Shown piece after piece: positions 5,487-27,643 of a stretch of 64,000 nt of DNA. The stretch is from NCBI RefSeq assembly GCF_002877365.1, contig NZ_MCWZ01000293.1, positions 1 through 64,000 of the forward strand, in the 5' to 3' direction. Position numbers and translations under genes: made by a program. Origin of the DNA: Vibrio sp. 10N.261.55.A7. Its GTDB lineage: Bacteria; Pseudomonadota; Gammaproteobacteria; Enterobacterales; Vibrionaceae. How positions within the stretch are numbered: position 1 is the first letter of the stretch; each line of letters starts with the position of its first letter. The notes under the pieces are model-generated. The model saw nothing but the letters and a program-made list of their open reading frames with translations, did no database searches and had not been told where the DNA came from.

Positions 5487-6212
5487 CACCACTCTCCTAA
5501 AATTTAAATATCCTATTGCGGCCAAAAAGTTGCGGCCAAAAAGGCTTGCACCGCTTAATCGCGAGAAGTCATCCGTTCAAAGGAACGTGCCTTCATACAT
5601 GCTTCAACCAAGCCAGCAATACAAGCCGCGCAAAGAGTAACAAGCAACGAGCACTTCAATCGACCAGCCTTGTTACTCACTTTACTTGCGAAAAACATAC
5701 CTATTCATCAAGCACGTTCCACTATAAGGCGACAGTTGAATGATTAAAAATCACTTTAAATCACAGAATTCATGAAAATATATCATACATAAAATCTCCC
5801 CTCTGACCTCTTAAAACTCATCGATTCCCCTTTCTTTTTTTATCACCACTTTCATTGCCCAATGTTAATGGTCAACAAAAGCCAATGGTTCTCTTCAAAT
5901 GAGAACCTCAGGCCACTCAATCAGACCATCAGTAAAGAACTGAAAAAAACCACGGCAAATCAAAGAAAAAATCGTGAATCAACTGGATCATATGCGTACA
6001 TAGACTAATAATTAAGTTGCATATAAGAAGTGCTAATTTTATTGGGCCTTTACTCGCTGTAAAAAAACCAAGCCTATTTAAGCAAACAGGCCACCCCGGT
6101 ATTACTGGATTCCCAATAAAAAGAGCACTTAAAGAAAATCATTCATGAAATGAATGCAAAACCACTGCTTCTGTCGGTGGTACTGACTATTTTTGATGAT
6201 AAGGAAAGTTTG
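5487..6212. other. Long intergenic region upstream of glutamate decarboxylase
   Basis: These 726 bases hold no gene I can support; short open frames lack ribosome-binding sites. The region is AT-rich towards 5750-6000. A perfect 14-bp tandem duplication (TTGCGGCCAAAAAG, 5516-5529 and 5530-5543) sits just upstream of the GNAT gene. An imperfect hairpin (gcctattt / aaacaggc) lies near 6072-6094. The promoter of the decarboxylase gene should be here, but I cannot assign its boxes. Confidence 0.5.
5516..5543. repeat. Perfect 14-bp tandem duplication
   Basis: TTGCGGCCAAAAAG occurs twice back to back just upstream of the GNAT start codon (30 bases away). It is one of several recent short duplications in this window. 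Confidence 0.9.
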
Positions 6213-7784
6213 ATGGCTAAGGATAATGGAATGTTGCCAGTGTACGGGCGTAAAGAGTTTAAACAAAGTGTCCCTAAATTGCGCATCCCAGAAGAACCAA
6301 TGGCTCCAGAATCGGCATACAGGATGATTCAAGACTCTTTAAATCTTGATGGCAGTCCAGCGCTGAATCTCGCGACCTATGTCAACACCTGGATGGATGA
6401 TTACGCTGAGCGACTCATCAACGAAAACCTCGATAAAAATTTCATTGATCATGAAGAATATCCCCAAAGCTCTTTGATTGAGAAGCGCCTCATCCGAATG
6501 ATGGGCGATATGCTGGGTACCGAGTTTGATCCAGCCGATACCGACCCCGATACCAGCGAAGGCTTTTACGGCTCGGTCACTGTCGGATCTTCTGAAGCGA
6601 TTATGTTAGCGCTGATCGCACACCGTAAGCATTGGCAAAATTGCAGCCGAAAAAACCCCAACCGTAATCCATTAGATCGACCGTTTTTGCTCATGAGTAC
6701 CCACGTGCATGGTTGCTGGGACAAATACTGCCGCTATTACGATGTGGGGGCTTTATATGTCTCAATGAGTGACGATAAGTACACGTTGACGGGTGGCGAT
6801 GTGACAGAGGTTCTTCATTGCAAAATTAAAGACAGCCCGTACCGAAATGAGATCATCAATCTTTGCGAGTACCCAGCGGATTACCTTCCAACTTTAGACG
6901 AGCGAACCGTAGGGGAACTGGTGATGACGGTAGGTTCCATTGCGGGAACCACCTTTACAGGGAATGGTGATGATACCGAAGGTATCGATAACGCAGTCGA
7001 AGCCTATTGCAAAGCCGTTCCTTACACAGATATCCCGATTCATGTTGACGGTGCCAGTGGTGGCTTCATGCTCCCTTTTACCAATCTACGCGCTGAAAAT
7101 ATGGGCCATAAAGCGGCCAAGTTTGACTTCAAACAGACTAAGCGGGTTCGTTCAATTAACGTCTCTAATCATAAGTTTGGAATGGTTTACCCAGGAATGG
7201 GAACGGTCGTATTTCGCGATAAAAATGTCGTCGACCCCGATCTGATTTACAACATTACCTATCTTGGTGGCAGCTTTGTCGACTATACCGTGAATTTCTC
7301 TCGCGGCTCTGGCGTCATTATCAGTCAGTACTACAACTTCCTCAGCTGGGGACGCCAAGGGTATCAAGCGGTATTGGATAACTGCATGGACAACACCGAC
7401 CATCTTATCAACTGCATAACAGACAACCCAACACTCAACCAAATCTTCAGCCCAATCAGCGACAACATTCACTATCCCATTGTGGTGTTCAAACGCGTAG
7501 AACGCGAGGGAGGGTACGCTTGGAACATGCCCGACTTCGCCGACGAAATGCGTGAATATGGCTGGATTATCGCCTCTTATAAGCTGCCGACCACGGATCC
7601 AGAAAAGGCCGATGGTCCTTACGTATTCCGAATCGTAGTTCGACAGGTGATTACCTCGGAGCAAATTGAATCCATGGCCAATCACATGATTACGGTGGTT
7701 GAAGAGCTAGAAAAGCGCGATGAAACAACAGCACAGCCTTTACGTATTCAAAAGCGCAAACCCTATAGAGCATCAAGAATGTAA
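6213..7784 (+). CDS. Glutamate decarboxylase (PLP-dependent)
   Basis: A 523-residue group II pyridoxal-phosphate decarboxylase that should convert L-glutamate to GABA and CO2. The Schiff-base lysine is K321 in SINVSNHKFGMVYPGMG. Segments seen in E. coli GadB are kept: NLATYVNTW (substrate threonine), DKNFIDHEEYPQS (substrate aspartate), VGSSEAIMLAL, HVDGASGGF (the aspartate that pairs with the PLP nitrogen) and VNFSRGSGVIISQYYNFL. At the place of the GadB PLP-stacking glutamine this protein has histidine (THVHGCWDKY), as in many other group II decarboxylases. It is about 55 residues longer than GadB, from insertions in the middle and at the N-terminus. The ATG at 6213 has aagga 7 bases upstream; earlier starts do not. 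It ends 12 bases before the carbon-nitrogen hydrolase gene, so the two are one operon. No glutamate/GABA antiporter is nearby. Confidence 0.85.
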   Translation: MAKDNGMLPVYGRKEFKQSVPKLRIPEEPMAPESAYRMIQDSLNLDGSPALNLATYVNTWMDDYAERLINENLDKNFIDHEEYPQSSLIEKRLIRMMGDMLGTEFDPADTDPDTSEGFYGSVTVGSSEAIMLALIAHRKHWQNCSRKNPNRNPLDRPFLLMSTHVHGCWDKYCRYYDVGALYVSMSDDKYTLTGGDVTEVLHCKIKDSPYRNEIINLCEYPADYLPTLDERTVGELVMTVGSIAGTTFTGNGDDTEGIDNAVEAYCKAVPYTDIPIHVDGASGGFMLPFTNLRAENMGHKAAKFDFKQTKRVRSINVSNHKFGMVYPGMGTVVFRDKNVVDPDLIYNITYLGGSFVDYTVNFSRGSGVIISQYYNFLSWGRQGYQAVLDNCMDNTDHLINCITDNPTLNQIFSPISDNIHYPIVVFKRVEREGGYAWNMPDFADEMREYGWIIASYKLPTTDPEKADGPYVFRIVVRQVITSEQIESMANHMITVVEELEKRDETTAQPLRIQKRKPYRASRM

Positions 7785-7796
7785 AGGAGTCAGTGA

Positions 7797-8876
7797 ATGG
7801 GTATCAATATCGATCAATTAAACAGTCAAGGCAACATGTGCGAATTAGGTGAGACGATCAAGGATTGTCGCTACCCAATGGTCAAAATGTGTCTCACGGG
7901 TACCGATGCGCCCAAATCAGGAGAAGGGCTTCGAATTGCGGTCTATCAAGGAGAAGGGCTAGCCGGCGATCAGAAAGCCATCGACTATAACCTTAAATGC
8001 CTCAAAGAATGGGCCGAAAAAGCGGCCAGTTATCAGGCACAAATACTCGTGCTGCCAGAGCTGTTCCTCTGTGGCTACAATATCTTGCCCGATGACATTC
8101 CCCATGTCGTGCGCACTGAGGCAGAAGTACAAGAACTCGTTGGGCCCATTGCTCGAAAAAATGGACTCGCTATAGTCTGCCCTTATGCGGAAAAAGATCC
8201 GGTGACTGGTGAGCACTACGACACGATCCTAACGCTTGATAAGAGCGGCGAAATTCTTCGCAACTACCGTAAGTGCCACCTTTGGGGAGAAGGAGAGAAA
8301 ACCAATTGGAAATACCCCTATGTCGATCACCCAGAAGAGGCATATCGCCCGTTTAAGGTCAATGGGATCAATGTCGGTCTTCTCAACTGTTATGAGGCAG
8401 AGTTCCCCGAGCTATATCGAATCTATGCACTTCAGGGCACCCAAGTGGTCATCGCTCCAACAGCTGCAGATGTTGGCACCGTCAACGCTGAGGGCGTCTT
8501 TTTTAGCTCTTGGACCTATCCCGATATTTCCAAAACGGCAATTCCCGGCAACGCCTACAGCAATAAGATGTTTGTCGTCTATTCCAACCACTCTATGCGT
8601 CAATTTCGCTCTGACGGCAGTCTCTCTGGCGTCTACTTAGGAAACAGTGCCATCGCTGATCCATATGGTGAATTGCTTGCGCACGCTAATAACATGCCGA
8701 CCTTACTTATCGCAGATTGCGTGCCCAGCAATTACATGCCCACTCACCCTTATGGCGAGAGTGATTACATCAAAGATCGTCGCCCAGAGCTCTATGCAGC
8801 CCTAACCAGAATGGAAGCAAAACTGCCGGATGGGAGTACGTATCACTACCCTAAAAACCCGAATAAACGCTCATAA
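7797..8876 (+). CDS. Carbon-nitrogen hydrolase (nitrilase superfamily)
   Basis: A 359-residue nitrilase-superfamily enzyme that hydrolyses an amide, carbamoyl or nitrile C-N bond. The catalytic triad is visible: E88 (VLPELFLCGYN), K159 (YRKCHLWG) and C198 (LLNCYEAEFPELYR). The PELF and CYEAEFPE forms fit amidases and carbamoylputrescine-like hydrolases better than true nitrilases, but the substrate cannot be told from sequence. An N-terminal extension of about 45 residues precedes the usual start of the fold (LRIAVYQGEG). A strong ribosome-binding site (aaaggag) precedes ATG. It lies 12 bases after glutamate decarboxylase, suggesting that its product or ammonia feeds glutamate/GABA metabolism (inference), and 65 bases before a TorT-like binding protein. 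Confidence 0.85.
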   Translation: MGINIDQLNSQGNMCELGETIKDCRYPMVKMCLTGTDAPKSGEGLRIAVYQGEGLAGDQKAIDYNLKCLKEWAEKAASYQAQILVLPELFLCGYNILPDDIPHVVRTEAEVQELVGPIARKNGLAIVCPYAEKDPVTGEHYDTILTLDKSGEILRNYRKCHLWGEGEKTNWKYPYVDHPEEAYRPFKVNGINVGLLNCYEAEFPELYRIYALQGTQVVIAPTAADVGTVNAEGVFFSSWTYPDISKTAIPGNAYSNKMFVVYSNHSMRQFRSDGSLSGVYLGNSAIADPYGELLAHANNMPTLLIADCVPSNYMPTHPYGESDYIKDRRPELYAALTRMEAKLPDGSTYHYPKNPNKRS

Positions 8877-8941: not shown

Positions 8942-10063
8942 ATGTTGAATAACACATTATTGAAAAGCACGCTGTGTGCTTCCATTACTTTAAGTCTTTT
9001 CGCCGTACAGAACAGCTTTGCTGAGGAAGTGTCAGTGGGAAGCTACTATGGCAACTATGATGTCACACAAAAAAGTCCTGGCCAGCAGGCTCTGAGCTTG
9101 CGTGGCCCAATCATGGAAACTTGGACACTGCCTGCCGTTCCAGAGAAAAAGCTGCGTATAGGCATCAGTATCCCGCACGTTCAAGATTCTTATTGGCACG
9201 CTGTAAACTACGGGCTCACCAGTGAAGCAGAACGCCTCAATGTTGAGTTTGTGGTGAAAGAAGCAGGCGGCTATTCCTACCTTGATACCCAGCAGCAGCA
9301 ACTGAACGAATTAGTTGAGCTTGGGGTTGATGGCATCATACTCGGCTCCATCAGCTACAGCGGAAATAATGAATTAGTTAAGCAGATCGATACTCAGGGC
9401 ATTCCGATCATTGAAGTAATTAATGATATTGAAGCACAGAGTATCTCAGCAAAATCCATCGTGAGTTTCTATGACATGGGGTATTTGGCGGGGGAGTATG
9501 TCGCCAATGACGCTGAAAAGGCCGGAAAAAATAAGGTCAACGTTGTCTTTCTTCCTGGGCCAAAAAACTCTGGTTGGGCGGATGATTCCTTCACTGGTTT
9601 CCAATCGGCAACCGATTTCTTTCCCGGAGAGATGAGCGTCGTTGCCGTTGAGTGGGGGGACACTTCCGCAAAAGCCCAAGGCGATTTACTTGCTAGCGCG
9701 CTCAAGGCGCACCCAGATGTCGACTACGTGATTGGCAATGCCGTTGCTGCCGAGCTTGCTCCCGAGATTATCGCTCAATCAGGGCAGGATTCAAAAGTCA
9801 TTGGAACCTATATTACTCCGGCACTGTACAAAGGCATTAACAACGGAACCATTGCCGCAGCGCCAGCCGATATGACTGTTGACCAAGCGCGAATCGCCAT
9901 GGGGATGATGGTACGCCTGCTTAAAGACGAAAAACCAGGCACTGACTTCCCGTTCAGAGCCGGACCACTCATTCCGGTACTCAGCAAATCGAACATCACT
10001 GATTATTCTTACGAGAAGCTTTTTGGCCCGAAAGACTATTCAGTGCGCATGGACAATATGTAA
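8942..10063 (+). CDS. TorT-like periplasmic ligand-binding protein
   Basis: A 373-residue periplasmic binding protein. Residues 1-27 form a signal peptide (cleavage near SFA-EE), followed by a type I binding fold of about 310 residues. Conserved parts follow E. coli TorT, which binds trimethylamine N-oxide and passes the signal to the TorS kinase: DSYWHAVNYGL, VKEAGGYSYLDTQQQQLNELVELGVDGIILGS, GIPIIEVIND and VFLPGPKNSGW. No TorS/TorR or reductase gene is near. Instead the next gene is a chemoreceptor with a long helical periplasmic region. A good ribosome-binding site (aggag, 7-8 bases) precedes ATG. The ligand is unknown; the upstream decarboxylase and hydrolase make an amine or amide plausible (inference). 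Confidence 0.85.
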   Translation: MLNNTLLKSTLCASITLSLFAVQNSFAEEVSVGSYYGNYDVTQKSPGQQALSLRGPIMETWTLPAVPEKKLRIGISIPHVQDSYWHAVNYGLTSEAERLNVEFVVKEAGGYSYLDTQQQQLNELVELGVDGIILGSISYSGNNELVKQIDTQGIPIIEVINDIEAQSISAKSIVSFYDMGYLAGEYVANDAEKAGKNKVNVVFLPGPKNSGWADDSFTGFQSATDFFPGEMSVVAVEWGDTSAKAQGDLLASALKAHPDVDYVIGNAVAAELAPEIIAQSGQDSKVIGTYITPALYKGINNGTIAAAPADMTVDQARIAMGMMVRLLKDEKPGTDFPFRAGPLIPVLSKSNITDYSYEKLFGPKDYSVRMDNM

Positions 10064-10065
10064 CG

Positions 10066-10097
10066 AAAAGAAGGCCCTTTGTTTGGGGGCCTTCTTT
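10066..10097 (+). terminator. Intrinsic terminator after TorT-like gene
   Basis: The stem AGAAGGCCC / GGGCCTTCTT with a short T-rich loop is followed by TTTCAT. It begins 3 bases after the stop codon, so the chemoreceptor downstream probably has its own promoter. Confidence 0.85.
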
Positions 10098-10231
10098 CAT
10101 TCGCATAGAAAATCACAACGTTGCGTGTCGCGTCGCTTAATAATCTCAATGGCTTAAAGCGTCGCGATAACCGTTAGAAAAATGAAACTCTATGTGTGTT
10201 GCGAAGGACTTTTCATTTCAAGGAAATACGT

Positions 10232-12172
10232 ATGTCAGTTAGAAAACTAATCATAAGCGGATTTGGATTATTGCTTGTCATAATCTCCGTTATTACGGTT
10301 AAGGGGTACTTATCCGTTGAGAATGCTTCTCTTGGGTTTGTTTCTTATCAAGAGCTTGCTGATGATGCCAATTATGCGTCCAATCTACGATCTCAGCTTC
10401 TAGAAGAGAGCTTGCTGGCGAACAAGTATATTATTTCTGGGAGCAAAGAAGCCTTGGCCGTGTATCAAGATGCGGCGAGTGTTCTTAAACAAAAACTGGA
10501 CGAAACAAGTGGTGAGGTGAGCGATCCAGAACGAATCTCAATATTGACAGACGCAAGAGAGCTTCATGACAGATACATCGGCGCATTCTCTGAAATTGAT
10601 GTACTTCAGAACACACGAGAATTAGAGGCAGCAACGCTCAATACACTGGGTAATGAGCTTCGCACTGCGTTAACTGGCCTTATTGATAACTCATTTAAAA
10701 GCAATAACATCTCAGCGATCTACTACGGTCAAAAAGCCCTTTCCCACGTTCAAGCCGGACGATTGGGTATCGTTAAATTCTTGAGCAATCGCGATAACGC
10801 CGCCGTAGAATCGACTCGCCAAGAATTTAAAGAGTTTGGAAAAGTCTTGCAGGTACTCGTGGGTTTGGTACGAGACCCTCAACAGCGGAAAGTTCTCGTT
10901 CAAGCTCGTAAGGCTGCGAGTCAATATGTGGCCATGACAGACCAACTCGTTAACACCGTTCTTCGCTGGGATGCGGCCATCAATGGCTCAGTGAGTGAAC
11001 TAAGCCCACAACTGATGGCGAAAGCAGAAGCATTCAATAAATCCGTGCAAGATGAACAAGCAAGCCTTGGTCCTGCACTGGCTAAAGTGAATCAAGCCAC
11101 CTCTTGGACCATTCTATCCGTGGGGACAATTGGCCTGATCATCGGGGTCATTGCCGCGGTGATCATCACAAGGGCAATCATTAAACCAATCAAGGCGGTC
11201 ATTAAACAGTTGGCTGACATAGCAGAAGGCGAAGGAGATTTAACCACGCAATTGCCTGTACATGGCGAGGGTGAACTAGCAAAACTGGCCACTAACTTTA
11301 ACTCTTTTGTCGGCAAGATTCGCAATACGGTTGAAGACTTAACGTCGGTCAATAAAGAGCTCGTGGGCTACTCAGAGAACATGGCGGCGATCAGCTTGCA
11401 AACGAGCCAAGGGGTCAACGGGCAACAGGAAAATACCGAACAGGTTGGTTTAGCCATTAATGAAATGAGCATCACGATTCAAGAAGTGGCTCAAAATGCG
11501 AATACCGCGTCAACGGCGACCATTCAGGCAGAGCAGCAGTCTAAGAGTAGTAAGGGAATCATTGGGCATACCATCAATCATATCAATACCTTGGCCGAGC
11601 AGATCAACAAATCAAGCCAAGCCGTACATAGCTTAGAAACAGAAACGGAAACCATCGTGTCTGTGCTTGATGTCATCAAAGGGATAGCGGAACAAACCAA
11701 CCTTCTTGCTCTCAATGCCGCAATTGAGGCAGCACGAGCAGGTGAACAAGGGAGAGGTTTCGCGGTCGTCGCCGATGAGGTAAGGAGCTTAGCTTCTCGT
11801 ACTCAAGAATCTGCGGGTGAAATCGATAGTATGATCGAAGGATTGCGTAAAGAAGTACGTAATACCGTTGAGATGATGAATATCGCTCAAGAGCATGCGA
11901 CATCAGGCGTGGAACAAGCAGAAAAAGGCGGACAAGCGATTGAAGAAGTCGCGAGCTCCATATCCCAAATCACCGAGATGAATAATCTAATAGCATCTGC
12001 AACAGAGCAGCAAGGCGCAGCGGCGAATGAAATCAATACAAGTATTACCAGCATAAGTGGAATCGGCCAAGAAACCTCTCATGGCGCGAGTGAAACCGCC
12101 AGACTGTGTGAATCCACTCAGCAAAAAGCCGCCCACATCAATGAGATTTTAAAACAATTTAAGGTGGCTTAA
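10232..12172 (+). CDS. Methyl-accepting chemotaxis protein, HBM/TorS-like sensor
   Basis: A 646-residue transmembrane chemoreceptor. TM1 is at about residues 5-25 and TM2 at about 290-315, leaving a roughly 260-residue periplasmic region rich in helices. That is about twice the usual four-helix bundle and resembles the helical bimodular (HBM) domain shared by some chemoreceptors and TorS. A HAMP domain follows (about 315-370, [26 protein letters not shown]). The signalling tip [35 protein letters not shown] is intact for CheA/CheW coupling. There is no CheR-tethering pentapeptide at the C-terminus. The ATG at 10232 has aagga 7 bases upstream. Because the gene before it encodes a TorT-like protein, sensing through a periplasmic partner is likely (inference). 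Confidence 0.9.
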
Positions 12173-25602: not shown

Positions 25603-25738
25603 CTTTTGCATTTCCTTCTACTCTGAACCTCTTTAAGTACAGCCACTTTGCCCTGCAGCTTTATTGATAGATTACTACGGCAAGTTGTTTTTCTTAATCT
25701 AGACTTATAAACAGCGCTAGAGACATCAGGGAATGATT

Positions 25739-27643
25739 ATGAAACAGCTTGGACTCAAAAAAATACTCCTTTTATCCGTCATGATTTTAGTCGGGCTTTC
25801 CGTTTCTGGGGTCAGCGTCATGCTTTATCTGCAAGAAAAAGAAGCGCTAACTGAGAGTGTAATTAACGAGAGTAAAACCTACGCGGCTTCCAAAGCAGCC
25901 ATTGTTGAAACCATCATCAACGAGAAAGTCGGCGGCATCAGCAAACTCGCGCAACAGTATAAAGACAAAGCATTCAAAGGCTCCCGAGAAGAGCTCATTG
26001 AGCAAACCTTCTTTCTGGCGAATGCCATGAACCTGAACAGCGCGGTGTTGGCCTTTGAAACAGGTGATGCATATTGGAACCAAACCGCGACGGCGTGGCC
26101 CGATCACAAATTTGATGGGGATGTTAAAACGAGCGGATGGTATCAGGATGGACGACGAGCCAACTCCGTGACGGTGACGGAACCGTATTCCGATGAAGAC
26201 AACGTCTTTTGGTTAACCATCATCGAAAAAATTAAGGGCGGAACAATCTCGGTCGATATGAGACTGAATTTCCTCAACGCTCTGGTTAAACAAGAAAATA
26301 GCATGGCCGGATCCACCGCGATGATCTTGAACCAAGACACTACCTTTCTCGCCTCTTCTTTTAATGAAATAACCGCAGGGACAAAAGGCAGTGACGTCGC
26401 CTGGTTCAAACACATTGCCGAACAAGCCGTCAGCAGTGAAAGTGCGCTGGTGGACTATGTTTTGGATGGAAACGACAAGATTCTCTTTTCACACCGAATT
26501 AATGCCGGCGATAAAGATTGGTATTTTGCCATCAGCATCGATAAATCGACTGCTTTTGCCATGTTAGATGAGTCTCGAAACAACGCCATCATGGTTTCTT
26601 TTATCGCCGTTTTGATCAGCATGATCTTGAGTTACTTACTGATTCAAACCCTTTACAAACCCATTCTCGTTCTTAAAGAGACCATTCTTAACCTCTCCAG
26701 CGGCGATGCTGATCTCACCGCCCGTTTAACCGTCGACTCTCATGATGACCTAGGAGACATTGCAAAAGGGGTGAACCAGTTCATTGAAAACCTACAAAAC
26801 ATGATGCTCGAGATCCAAGGCGTCACCACCACACTTCAATCCAATGTTGGACGAATTCGCGAACAATCGGCGCGTAATCGTGACATTTTACAAAATCACG
26901 TAAGTGAAACCGAACAAGTGGTGACCGCAATAGAAGAGATGAATGCCACGGCAGAATCGATGGCAACCGACGCCGCAAACACCGCGGGCTTGACCCAAAA
27001 AGCCAACGACACCAGTACCGAGTCACGTCGAATTGTCGAGCAGTCACAACAGACCGTGTCGGGGCTAATAGAAGACGTCAACCTCTCGGCTGAAAACGTG
27101 CAGAAAATGAATGACGAGACCCAGAGCATTAATGCCATTTTGAGCGTAATTGGAGAAATTGCAGAGCAAACCAATCTACTGGCACTCAACGCAGCCATTG
27201 AGGCGGCACGTGCTGGTGACCAAGGTCGCGGCTTTGCAGTCGTCGCTGACGAGGTACGAAATCTAGCCAGTCGAACCAAAGACAGCACGGAAGAGATAGA
27301 AGGTGCACTCGAGAGTTTATTGAAAGGAACCGATGCCGTGGTGAGATCGATGGACAACACCAAAGCACGTTGTCAGGATACGGCCAATGGCGCGGGTGAA
27401 GTGGCCATCAGCTTAGAAACCATGAGTGATTTTGTGAATGATATAAATGACTTAAGTACGCAAATCGCCACCGCGGCAGAAGAGCAAAGCAGCGTGACTC
27501 AAGAGCTGAGCCGCAACATGACAGCCATCAGTGACATCGTCGGCGAACTCGATGTGAATGGTCAAAACTCACTGAAAGACACAGAAGACGTGTCTGAAAT
27601 GAACGCGCAACTGATGAATATCGTGAATCGATTCAAGATCTGA
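25739..27643 (+). CDS. Methyl-accepting chemotaxis protein, Cache-type sensor
   Basis: A 634-residue chemoreceptor. TM1 at about residues 8-30, periplasmic region about 31-280 with dCache features ([29 protein letters not shown], then [29 protein letters not shown]), TM2 at about 283-305, HAMP about 306-360 and an intact signalling tip ([35 protein letters not shown]). Cache sensors of this kind often bind amino acids or other small metabolites directly. An aggga precedes the ATG at 25739; the ATG six bases earlier overlaps it. It is a single gene with a hairpin terminator after it. The ligand is unknown. Confidence 0.92.

What the first reader, a model, noticed from the sequence alone, without database searches (positions are those of the whole stretch)
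8942..12172. TorT-like binding protein next to an HBM-type chemoreceptor: possible partner-mediated chemotaxis
Seen: a TorT-like exported binding protein is followed by a chemoreceptor whose periplasmic region is about 260 residues, helix-rich and twice the usual size. Known: TorT delivers its signal to the TorS kinase, whose all-helical sensor is related to HBM domains. No TorS, TorR or TMAO reductase is present. Inference: the TorT fold has been rewired from a kinase to the flagellar chemotaxis system, sensing an amine or amide.
Basis: partly seen in the sequence, partly recalled or inferred. Interest (0 to 1): 0.7.

Follow-up and report, generated by a model that had tools for sequence, protein, structure and literature searches.

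The report
Binding protein paired with chemotaxis receptor
Four Vibrio species carry a small gene block in which an exported small-molecule catcher sits next to a swimming-control receptor, and a sister version of the same pair is joined to a different signalling enzyme, which suggests a two-part sensor that evolution has plugged into different outputs.

Summary
In detail: 8942-10063 encodes an exported TorT-family binding protein (SBP) and 10232-12172 a chemoreceptor with an all-helical periplasmic domain of about 265 residues. The predicted domain is HBM-type (McpS Z 22.2; TorS Z 16.9). The pair is kept with a glutamate-decarboxylase-like gene and an amidase gene in 4 of 227 Vibrio genomes, in three different surroundings. 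A fifth Vibrio (G073) has the sister SBP overlapping a hybrid histidine kinase whose sensor is the sister of this chemoreceptor domain, followed by a response-regulator diguanylate cyclase. SBP and sensor trees agree, so the pair behaves like a cassette with swapped outputs; partner-mediated chemotaxis is the best reading (inferred, not shown). That TorT itself was rewired is not supported: the SBP does not group with TorS-linked TorTs and its nearest kin is a transporter SBP in a lactam/GABA-catabolism cluster; the family's deep root is unresolved. The host has TorT, TorS and TorA elsewhere. A GABA-related amide or lactam is a weak guess for the ligand. Precedents exist (TorT-TorS; PstS-CtpL), so this is a new variant of a known kind.

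The parts
6150..7784 (+). PLP-dependent decarboxylase, glutamate-decarboxylase-like (likely start about 6213, MAKDNGML, by comparison with the relatives)
   Evidence: TIGR01788 394.1 bits, cut-off 380.4; PF00282; first gene of the block in 3 other species
7797..8876 (+). carbon-nitrogen hydrolase (amidase/nitrilase superfamily)
   Evidence: PF00795 E 4e-40; best NCBIfam model agmatine_aguB far below cut-off; matches at E<=1e-25 in the same 4 of 223 genus genomes
8942..10063 (+). exported TorT-family substrate-binding protein
   Evidence: trees
10067..10097 (+). terminator-like hairpin after the binding-protein gene
   Evidence: RNA fold -20.6 kcal/mol, z -4.75, 0 of 200 shuffles as stable; V. 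amylolyticus has one too, z -4.67
10232..12172 (+). methyl-accepting chemotaxis protein, 646 aa, ATG start
10307..11101 (+). periplasmic ligand-binding domain, HBM-type fold, six helices
   Evidence: AlphaFold2 mean pLDDT 90.8 on 262 residues; McpS Z 22.2, TorS Z 16.9
11165..11323 (+). HAMP domain
   Evidence: PF00672 (coordinates converted by hand)
11597..12061 (+). MCP signalling domain
   Evidence: PF00015 E 8e-43 (coordinates converted by hand)

Best explanation
The two genes encode a dedicated binding-protein-mediated chemotaxis sensor. The exported TorT-family SBP binds a small neutral or amine-like solute in the periplasm and docks, in its loaded state, on the HBM-type domain of the chemoreceptor, which signals through HAMP and the MCP domain to CheA and the flagellum. 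The SBP-sensor pair is an evolutionary cassette: in a sister lineage the same pair drives a hybrid histidine kinase followed by a response-regulator diguanylate cyclase. The SBP's nearest relative outside the signalling pairs is a transporter SBP in a lactam/GABA-catabolism cluster, not TorT. Shown: gene content, order, conservation, predicted fold class, joint phylogeny. Inferred: physical docking, loss of direct ligand binding by the receptor, ligand class (a GABA-related amide or lactam, perhaps 30%).
For: Conservation: SBP matches at E<=1e-55 in 9 of 227 genus genomes; the 4 closest (own, G523, G097, G001; V. amylolyticus, V. aestivus and V. mexicanus by equal contig lengths) have decarboxylase-amidase-SBP-MCP in the same order, while window and V. 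amylolyticus flanks match no other flank by blastn and only V. aestivus/V. mexicanus share flanks. Cassette: in G073 the SBP (51% identical) overlaps by 4 nt a hybrid kinase whose sensor is 34% identical to this receptor domain (other places at E<=1e-5 in 148 genus genomes are 19-27%), followed by RR-GGDEF. MCP-linked and G073 SBPs form one clade (99/99), and the 4 linked sensors form one against 25 unlinked ones (100/99). Residues nearly fixed in the 25 unlinked domains differ in all 4 linked ones: R15 (24 of 25) to Q, Q28 (25 of 25) to R, N30 (22 of 25) to Q. Fold: McpS Z 22.2, rmsd 1.7 over 230 residues; TorS Z 16.9. Purifying selection against V. amylolyticus: dN/dS 0.038 (sensor), 0.016 (signalling part), dS saturated. 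CheA dimerisation domain in 3 places of the genome. Precedents: PstS-CtpL, 1:1 complex, KD 3.7 uM (PMC4926252, passages), CtpL being HBM-type (PMC6321045, passages); TorT-TorS and LuxP-LuxQ. Ligand: relatives' clusters carry a GABA transaminase, SSADH-like, PxpA-like and biotin-carboxylase-type genes (G789, G136) or caprolactamase-like genes and an aminotransferase (L089).
Against: No interaction, ligand or phenotype is shown. One kinase-linked sister was found, and the MCP lineage is 4 species, so the 4 linked sensors are about two lineages. A strong hairpin separates SBP and MCP genes. In the drafts of V. aestivus (decarboxylase, MCP sensor) and V. mexicanus (amidase, SBP) reading frames are interrupted; sequencing error and decay cannot be told apart here, so only window and V. 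amylolyticus have all four genes uninterrupted. [quoted passage not shown] HBM receptors are associated with direct binding of organic acids (PMC5126104, passages). The helix-1 changes were not mapped on a solved ligand pocket. A divergent SBP without a receptor beside it (L072) fell inside the linked clade, on a long branch. The root of the SBP family is unresolved, so a kinase-linked deep ancestor is not excluded.
Confidence: 0.72

Rival explanations
1. One reading: a canonical TorT was rewired from TorS to a chemoreceptor whose sensor derives from TorS.
For: NF008185 TorT score over cut-off; Pfam TorS_sensor_domain touches 3 of 29 sensors at E<=1, the three MCP-linked ones, E 0.005-0.02; TorS fold Z 16.9; TorS-linked TorTs are not one clade and the family root is unresolved, so a TorS-linked deep ancestor is possible.
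Against: Linked SBPs held with TorS-linked TorTs: p-AU 4.2e-5 (16 TorTs) and 1.8e-47 (17), both groups named after a first tree was seen; nearest kin a transporter SBP, 100/98; position 176/212 is W/G in 16 of 17 TorS-linked rows, W/W in one (L130), F/W in all 9 transporter-labelled rows and in the 4 MCP-linked, Y/W in G073; sensor-TorS profile match 6% against 100% with unlinked HBM-type domains; G073's sensor has no TorS_sensor match at E<=1; own TorT, TorS and TorA persist.
Confidence: 0.1
2. The receptor senses its ligand directly, like McpS or McpK, and the neighbouring SBP has another role; the block is only a co-regulated metabolic unit.
For: HBM receptors bind organic acids directly (PMC5126104, passages); hairpin between the genes.
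Against: The sister SBP overlaps a kinase with the sister sensor; no transporter gene between or next to the block genes in the ORF lists of window, V. amylolyticus, V. aestivus and V. mexicanus (by reading); helix-1 residues conserved in unlinked relatives are replaced.
Confidence: 0.17
3. The SBP has a dual role: it feeds a CUT2 transporter encoded elsewhere and reports to the receptor, as PstS does.
For: Nearest non-signalling relative is a transporter SBP; 4 permease places of family PF02653 in the genome.
Against: No transporter in the block; the permease at C72 has its own SBP-like gene beside it; the surroundings of the other three were not examined.
Confidence: 0.12
4. Chance neighbours in a hitch-hiking island.
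For: Rare, patchy distribution.
Against: Same order in 4 species with three surroundings, agreeing SBP and sensor trees, purifying selection.
Confidence: 0.03

Closest known systems
TorT-TorS (TMAO sensing)
   Same: TorT-family SBP beside a receptor with a double helical-bundle periplasmic domain
   Different: Output is an MCP, not a kinase; SBP groups elsewhere and has F at a position that is W in 17 of 17 TorS-linked rows; sensor below the TorS_sensor cut-off; tor genes are elsewhere in the genome
PstS-CtpL (Pseudomonas aeruginosa phosphate chemotaxis)
   Same: HBM-type chemoreceptor read through an SBP
   Different: pstS lies with the pstABC transporter genes (PMC4926252); here the SBP gene is next to the receptor gene, without a transporter; the SBP family also differs (recalled)
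McpS/McpK HBM chemoreceptors
   Same: Predicted fold (McpS Z 22.2)
   Different: They bind organic acids directly; here residues conserved in related domains are changed and an SBP gene is adjacent
SBP-kinase pairs (LuxP-LuxQ, XylFII-LytS)
   Same: SBP bound by the receptor; genes usually adjacent for kinases, 10 of 11 (PMC11113362)
   Different: Kinase output instead of chemotaxis

Membership tests
TorT (TorS partner) | NF008185 score over cut-off | tested here: met
   279.9 vs 200 bits
TorT (TorS partner) | TIGR02955 equivalog score over cut-off | tested here: not met
   218.9 vs 310 bits
TorT (TorS partner) | Groups with TorS-linked TorT | tested here: not met
   p-AU 4.2e-5 and 1.8e-47; groups named after a first tree
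TorT (TorS partner) | TorS gene adjacent | tested here: not met
   neighbours are amidase and MCP; the one TorS of the genome is on C327
TorT (TorS partner) | Binds TMAO | not testable with these tools
   pocket residue numbers recalled: D42, Y44, W45, Y71 kept; W140 corresponds to F176 here (alignment)
HBM sensor domain | PF16591 match over cut-off in this domain | tested here: not met
   not among the window domain's matches at E<=1; V. mexicanus orthologue 17.9 vs 29.8 bits
HBM sensor domain | PF16591 match in homologues | tested here: met
   26 of 29 alignment members at E<=1; 3 of 9 homologous domains scanned singly are over the cut-off; linked vs unlinked profile match 100%
HBM sensor domain | Two stacked four-helix modules, six helices | tested here: met
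   predicted model: six helices, McpS Z 22.2, rmsd 1.7 over 230
TorS sensor domain | PF21689 over cut-off | tested here: not met
   15.6 vs 27 bits
Chemoreceptor (MCP) | HAMP and MCPsignal domains | tested here: met
SBP-activated chemoreceptor | SBP binds receptor and is needed for taxis | not testable with these tools
   needs binding and taxis assays

The most novel reading that the evidence does not exclude
A self-contained SBP-HBM cassette that senses a GABA-related lactam or amide (for example 2-pyrrolidinone or 4-aminobutanamide) has been plugged into two outputs within one genus, flagellar chemotaxis and a kinase/c-di-GMP relay, the chemotaxis version being packed with a decarboxylase and an amidase that act on the same GABA pool: lactam chemotaxis and a natural output-swap pair.
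Probability: 0.22. Interest if true: 0.75.

Novelty: new variant of a known kind. Interest (0 to 1): 0.55.

Why it matters
[quoted passage not shown] A compact SBP-receptor pair without a transporter, with a kinase-linked sister, is a natural experiment: one input cassette, two outputs. It makes testable how an SBP contact evolves on helical sensors and gives a handle on the ligand of an uncharacterised TorT-family branch.

Tried and rejected
Rejected: TMAO chemotaxis by a plain TorT (tree and marker residues). Rejected: the sensor as a TorS-family domain, although a weak touch remains.

Further SBP-MCP pairs sought: order sample, 19 of 394 genomes with a match at E<=1e-42, 16 of them outside the genus, 8 of those 16 opened with wide flanks, none with an MCP signalling match. 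Class sample, 4 of 369 at E<=1e-50; the three besides the own genome were opened and have transporter genes (G789), a TorS-type kinase (G851) and neither seen (G946). Class search with the sensor profile: 10 of 369 at E<=1e-15; 5 of the 9 others opened, none with a TorT-like match at E<=1e-3. The search for related loci: 17 loci, 3 Vibrio with the MCP; the 14 others have no MCP signalling match in the stretch held (ORF lists printed for 7 of 17).

Profile search of PDB sequences with the sensor alignment: 12 rows, no McpS or TorS chain among them, best 9snn E 1.9e-8, although the fold comparison finds both. Promoter scan: 6 found, shuffles 11.0 on average, so no promoter is claimed; that scan did not list the hairpin. 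dN/dS for SBP and amidase not computable, dS saturated. Papers: no TorT-family SBP with a chemoreceptor seen in the rows listed (20 of 3,329; 20 of 47; 20 of 112; 1, unrelated; 5; 6), nor lactam chemotaxis (10 of 479); the library lacks most subscription papers.

Labels and dropped rows: 'unlinked' sensors means no TorT-like place (E<=1e-20) within 250 kb on the same contig when the place lists are compared by eye; other kinds of SBP were not looked for. All 17 rows labelled TorS have a TorS-type sensor beside them; of 9 rows labelled transporter, L129, L089 and L038 rest on family searches and reading, L133, L134, L091 and L099 on reading ORF starts, L097 and L101 on kinship only. Four sensor hits (L114, L115, L116, L118) were left out of alignment A2 because they looked like another domain type; the V. 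aestivus sensor because its frame is interrupted; many TorT rows were left out of the trees to save space; L072 and L076 (long branches) were and left out. G557 was not opened for neighbours.
Full report
What is there. In the window four genes run in one direction: a glutamate-decarboxylase-like enzyme (6150-7784), a carbon-nitrogen hydrolase (7797-8876), a TorT-family exported binding protein (8942-10063) and a chemoreceptor (10232-12172). The decarboxylase passes the NCBI cut-off for glutamate decarboxylase, 394.1 against 380.4 bits; the amidase is below the cut-off of each of the 8 models listed. The binding protein passes one TorT model and fails another, and its best solved relative is a CUT2-family binding protein, 4yhs, ahead of TorT 3o1h. 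A strong terminator-like hairpin follows the binding-protein gene here and in V. amylolyticus.

The sensor. The chemoreceptor's periplasmic domain does not itself match Pfam's HBM model at E<=1, but 26 of 29 members of its family alignment do, and three of the homologues scanned singly pass the cut-off. AlphaFold2 with 29 sequences gave six helices at mean pLDDT 90.8. Against solved structures the best match is McpS, Z 22.2, rmsd 1.7 over 230 residues; then PilJ 17.3 and TorS 16.9, rmsd 3.0 over 225; for helical bundles Z under about 13 may be chance. So it is HBM-type, with TorS as a fold cousin. By sequence it is not a TorS sensor: 15.6 bits against 27 and hhalign probability 6%, against 100% for the unlinked HBM-type domains of Vibrio. 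A hint remains: of 29 domains only the three MCP-linked ones touch the TorS model at E<=1.

Conservation. The 227 held genomes of the genus were searched with the binding protein: 9 match at E<=1e-55. Four have the block (own, G523, G097, G001); by equal contig lengths these are V. amylolyticus, V. aestivus and V. mexicanus. The amidase is found at E<=1e-25 in the same 4 of 223 genomes. The flanks of the window and of V. amylolyticus match none of the others; V. aestivus and V. mexicanus share theirs. So the block is kept as a unit in three surroundings. In the V. aestivus and V. mexicanus drafts some reading frames are interrupted, which leaves two species with all four genes uninterrupted.

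The sister pair. G073 has the next closest binding protein (51%); its stop overlaps by four bases a 1110-residue hybrid kinase (HAMP, HisKA, HATPase, two receivers, Hpt), followed by a response regulator with GGDEF. The kinase's sensor is 34% identical to the chemoreceptor's, while the other places found in 148 genus genomes at E<=1e-5 are 19-27% apart from the orthologues. In the binding-protein tree the four MCP-linked and the kinase-linked protein form a clade (99/99), and in the sensor tree the linked sensors do (100/99; V. aestivus not included). Agreeing trees on both sides of the pair, with different outputs, are what a conserved protein contact would leave. Positions nearly fixed in 25 unlinked domains are replaced in all 4 linked ones: 15 (R in 24 of 25, here Q), 28 (Q in 25 of 25, here R), 30 (N in 22 of 25, here Q). 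I read this as loss of a direct ligand site, an inference not mapped on a structure; three of the four are near-orthologues.

Origin of the binding protein. Holding the linked proteins with 16 TorS-linked TorTs costs 57.7 log-likelihood units, p-AU 4.2e-5; with all 17, 105.5 units, p-AU 1.8e-47; both groups were named after a first tree. TorS neighbours were checked for all 17. The sister of the linked clade is the transporter SBP of G789 (100/98; 47% identical). The TorS-linked TorTs are not one clade there and the root split is weak (41/16), so the deep history is open. At positions 176 and 212, 16 of 17 TorS-linked rows have W and G and one (L130) W and W; the 9 transporter-labelled rows and the 4 MCP-linked have F and W, G073 Y and W.

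Ligand clues. The G789 SBP sits with an ABC ATPase (by reading) and a CUT2-type permease, a GABA transaminase (TIGR00700 538.7 bits, cut-off 506.65), an SSADH-like protein, a PxpA-type protein and a biotin-carboxylase-type protein. The Vibrio G136 cluster has SSADH and PxpA-type proteins over a cut-off and PxpC-related and biotin-carboxylase genes; G556 and G574 look alike by ORF starts. The Mesorhizobium locus L089 has caprolactamase-like subunits, far below cut-off, and an aminotransferase. ATP-dependent lactamases act on cyclic amides (PMC8453981, passages). This points to lactams or GABA-related amides for this branch and fits a decarboxylase that could make GABA and an amidase, but it is guilt by association.

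Mechanism. I commit to partner-mediated chemotaxis: solute binds SBP; loaded SBP docks on the HBM-type domain; the MCP signals to CheA, whose dimerisation domain is found in three places of the genome. Precedents are PstS on CtpL (PMC4926252, passages), an HBM receptor (PMC6321045; PMC5126104; passages), and TorT on TorS. Adjacent genes are the rule for kinases, 10 of 11, but not for chemoreceptors, 3 of 11 (PMC11113362, passage).

Against it. Nothing physical is shown; one kinase sister only; the hairpin; interrupted frames in two drafts; HBM receptors are associated with direct binding of acids; a long-branch SBP without a receptor (L072) joined the linked clade.

Novelty. Both halves and the principle are known; the combination (TorT-family SBP, HBM-type chemoreceptor, no transporter, kinase-linked sister) was not seen in the rows listed. 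I rate it a new variant of a known kind.

Noticed in passing
L035 9671-15092: Vibrio G073: TorT-family SBP overlapping a hybrid kinase and followed by an RR-GGDEF gene; a probable SBP-driven c-di-GMP switch in its own right.
   Followed up: partly
L038 939-10564; L129 5900-17872: TorT-family SBPs with CUT2-type transporter genes in clusters of PxpA-type, biotin-carboxylase-type, SSADH-type and (L129) GABA-transaminase genes: candidate lactam (2-pyrrolidinone) uptake and degradation clusters.
   Followed up: partly
L001 (G000:C327) and L144 (G000:C21): The host genome has a second TorT divergent from a TorS, and a separate TorA.
   Followed up: yes
L130 3167-7250: G851: an SBP of this family divergent from a kinase with a TorS-type sensor (31% identity) lies apart from the other TorS-linked TorTs in the tree and has W at both marker positions.
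   Followed up: partly
L039 93-13277: In G008 a second SBP plus hybrid kinase pair (LuxP-LuxQ-like by reading and recall) lies a few genes from torT and torS.
   Followed up: no
L086 4274-5850 and 8355-10294; L087 3887-6139: Reading frames of block genes are interrupted in the V. aestivus and V. mexicanus drafts; sequencing error or decay not resolved.
   Followed up: no
L072 6363-11177: A very divergent TorT-like protein lies between a flavin amine oxidase and a pentapeptide-repeat protein, with no receptor or transporter seen beside it.
   Followed up: no
window 25733-27643: A second chemoreceptor in the window, with a dCache match below the cut-off.
   Followed up: no
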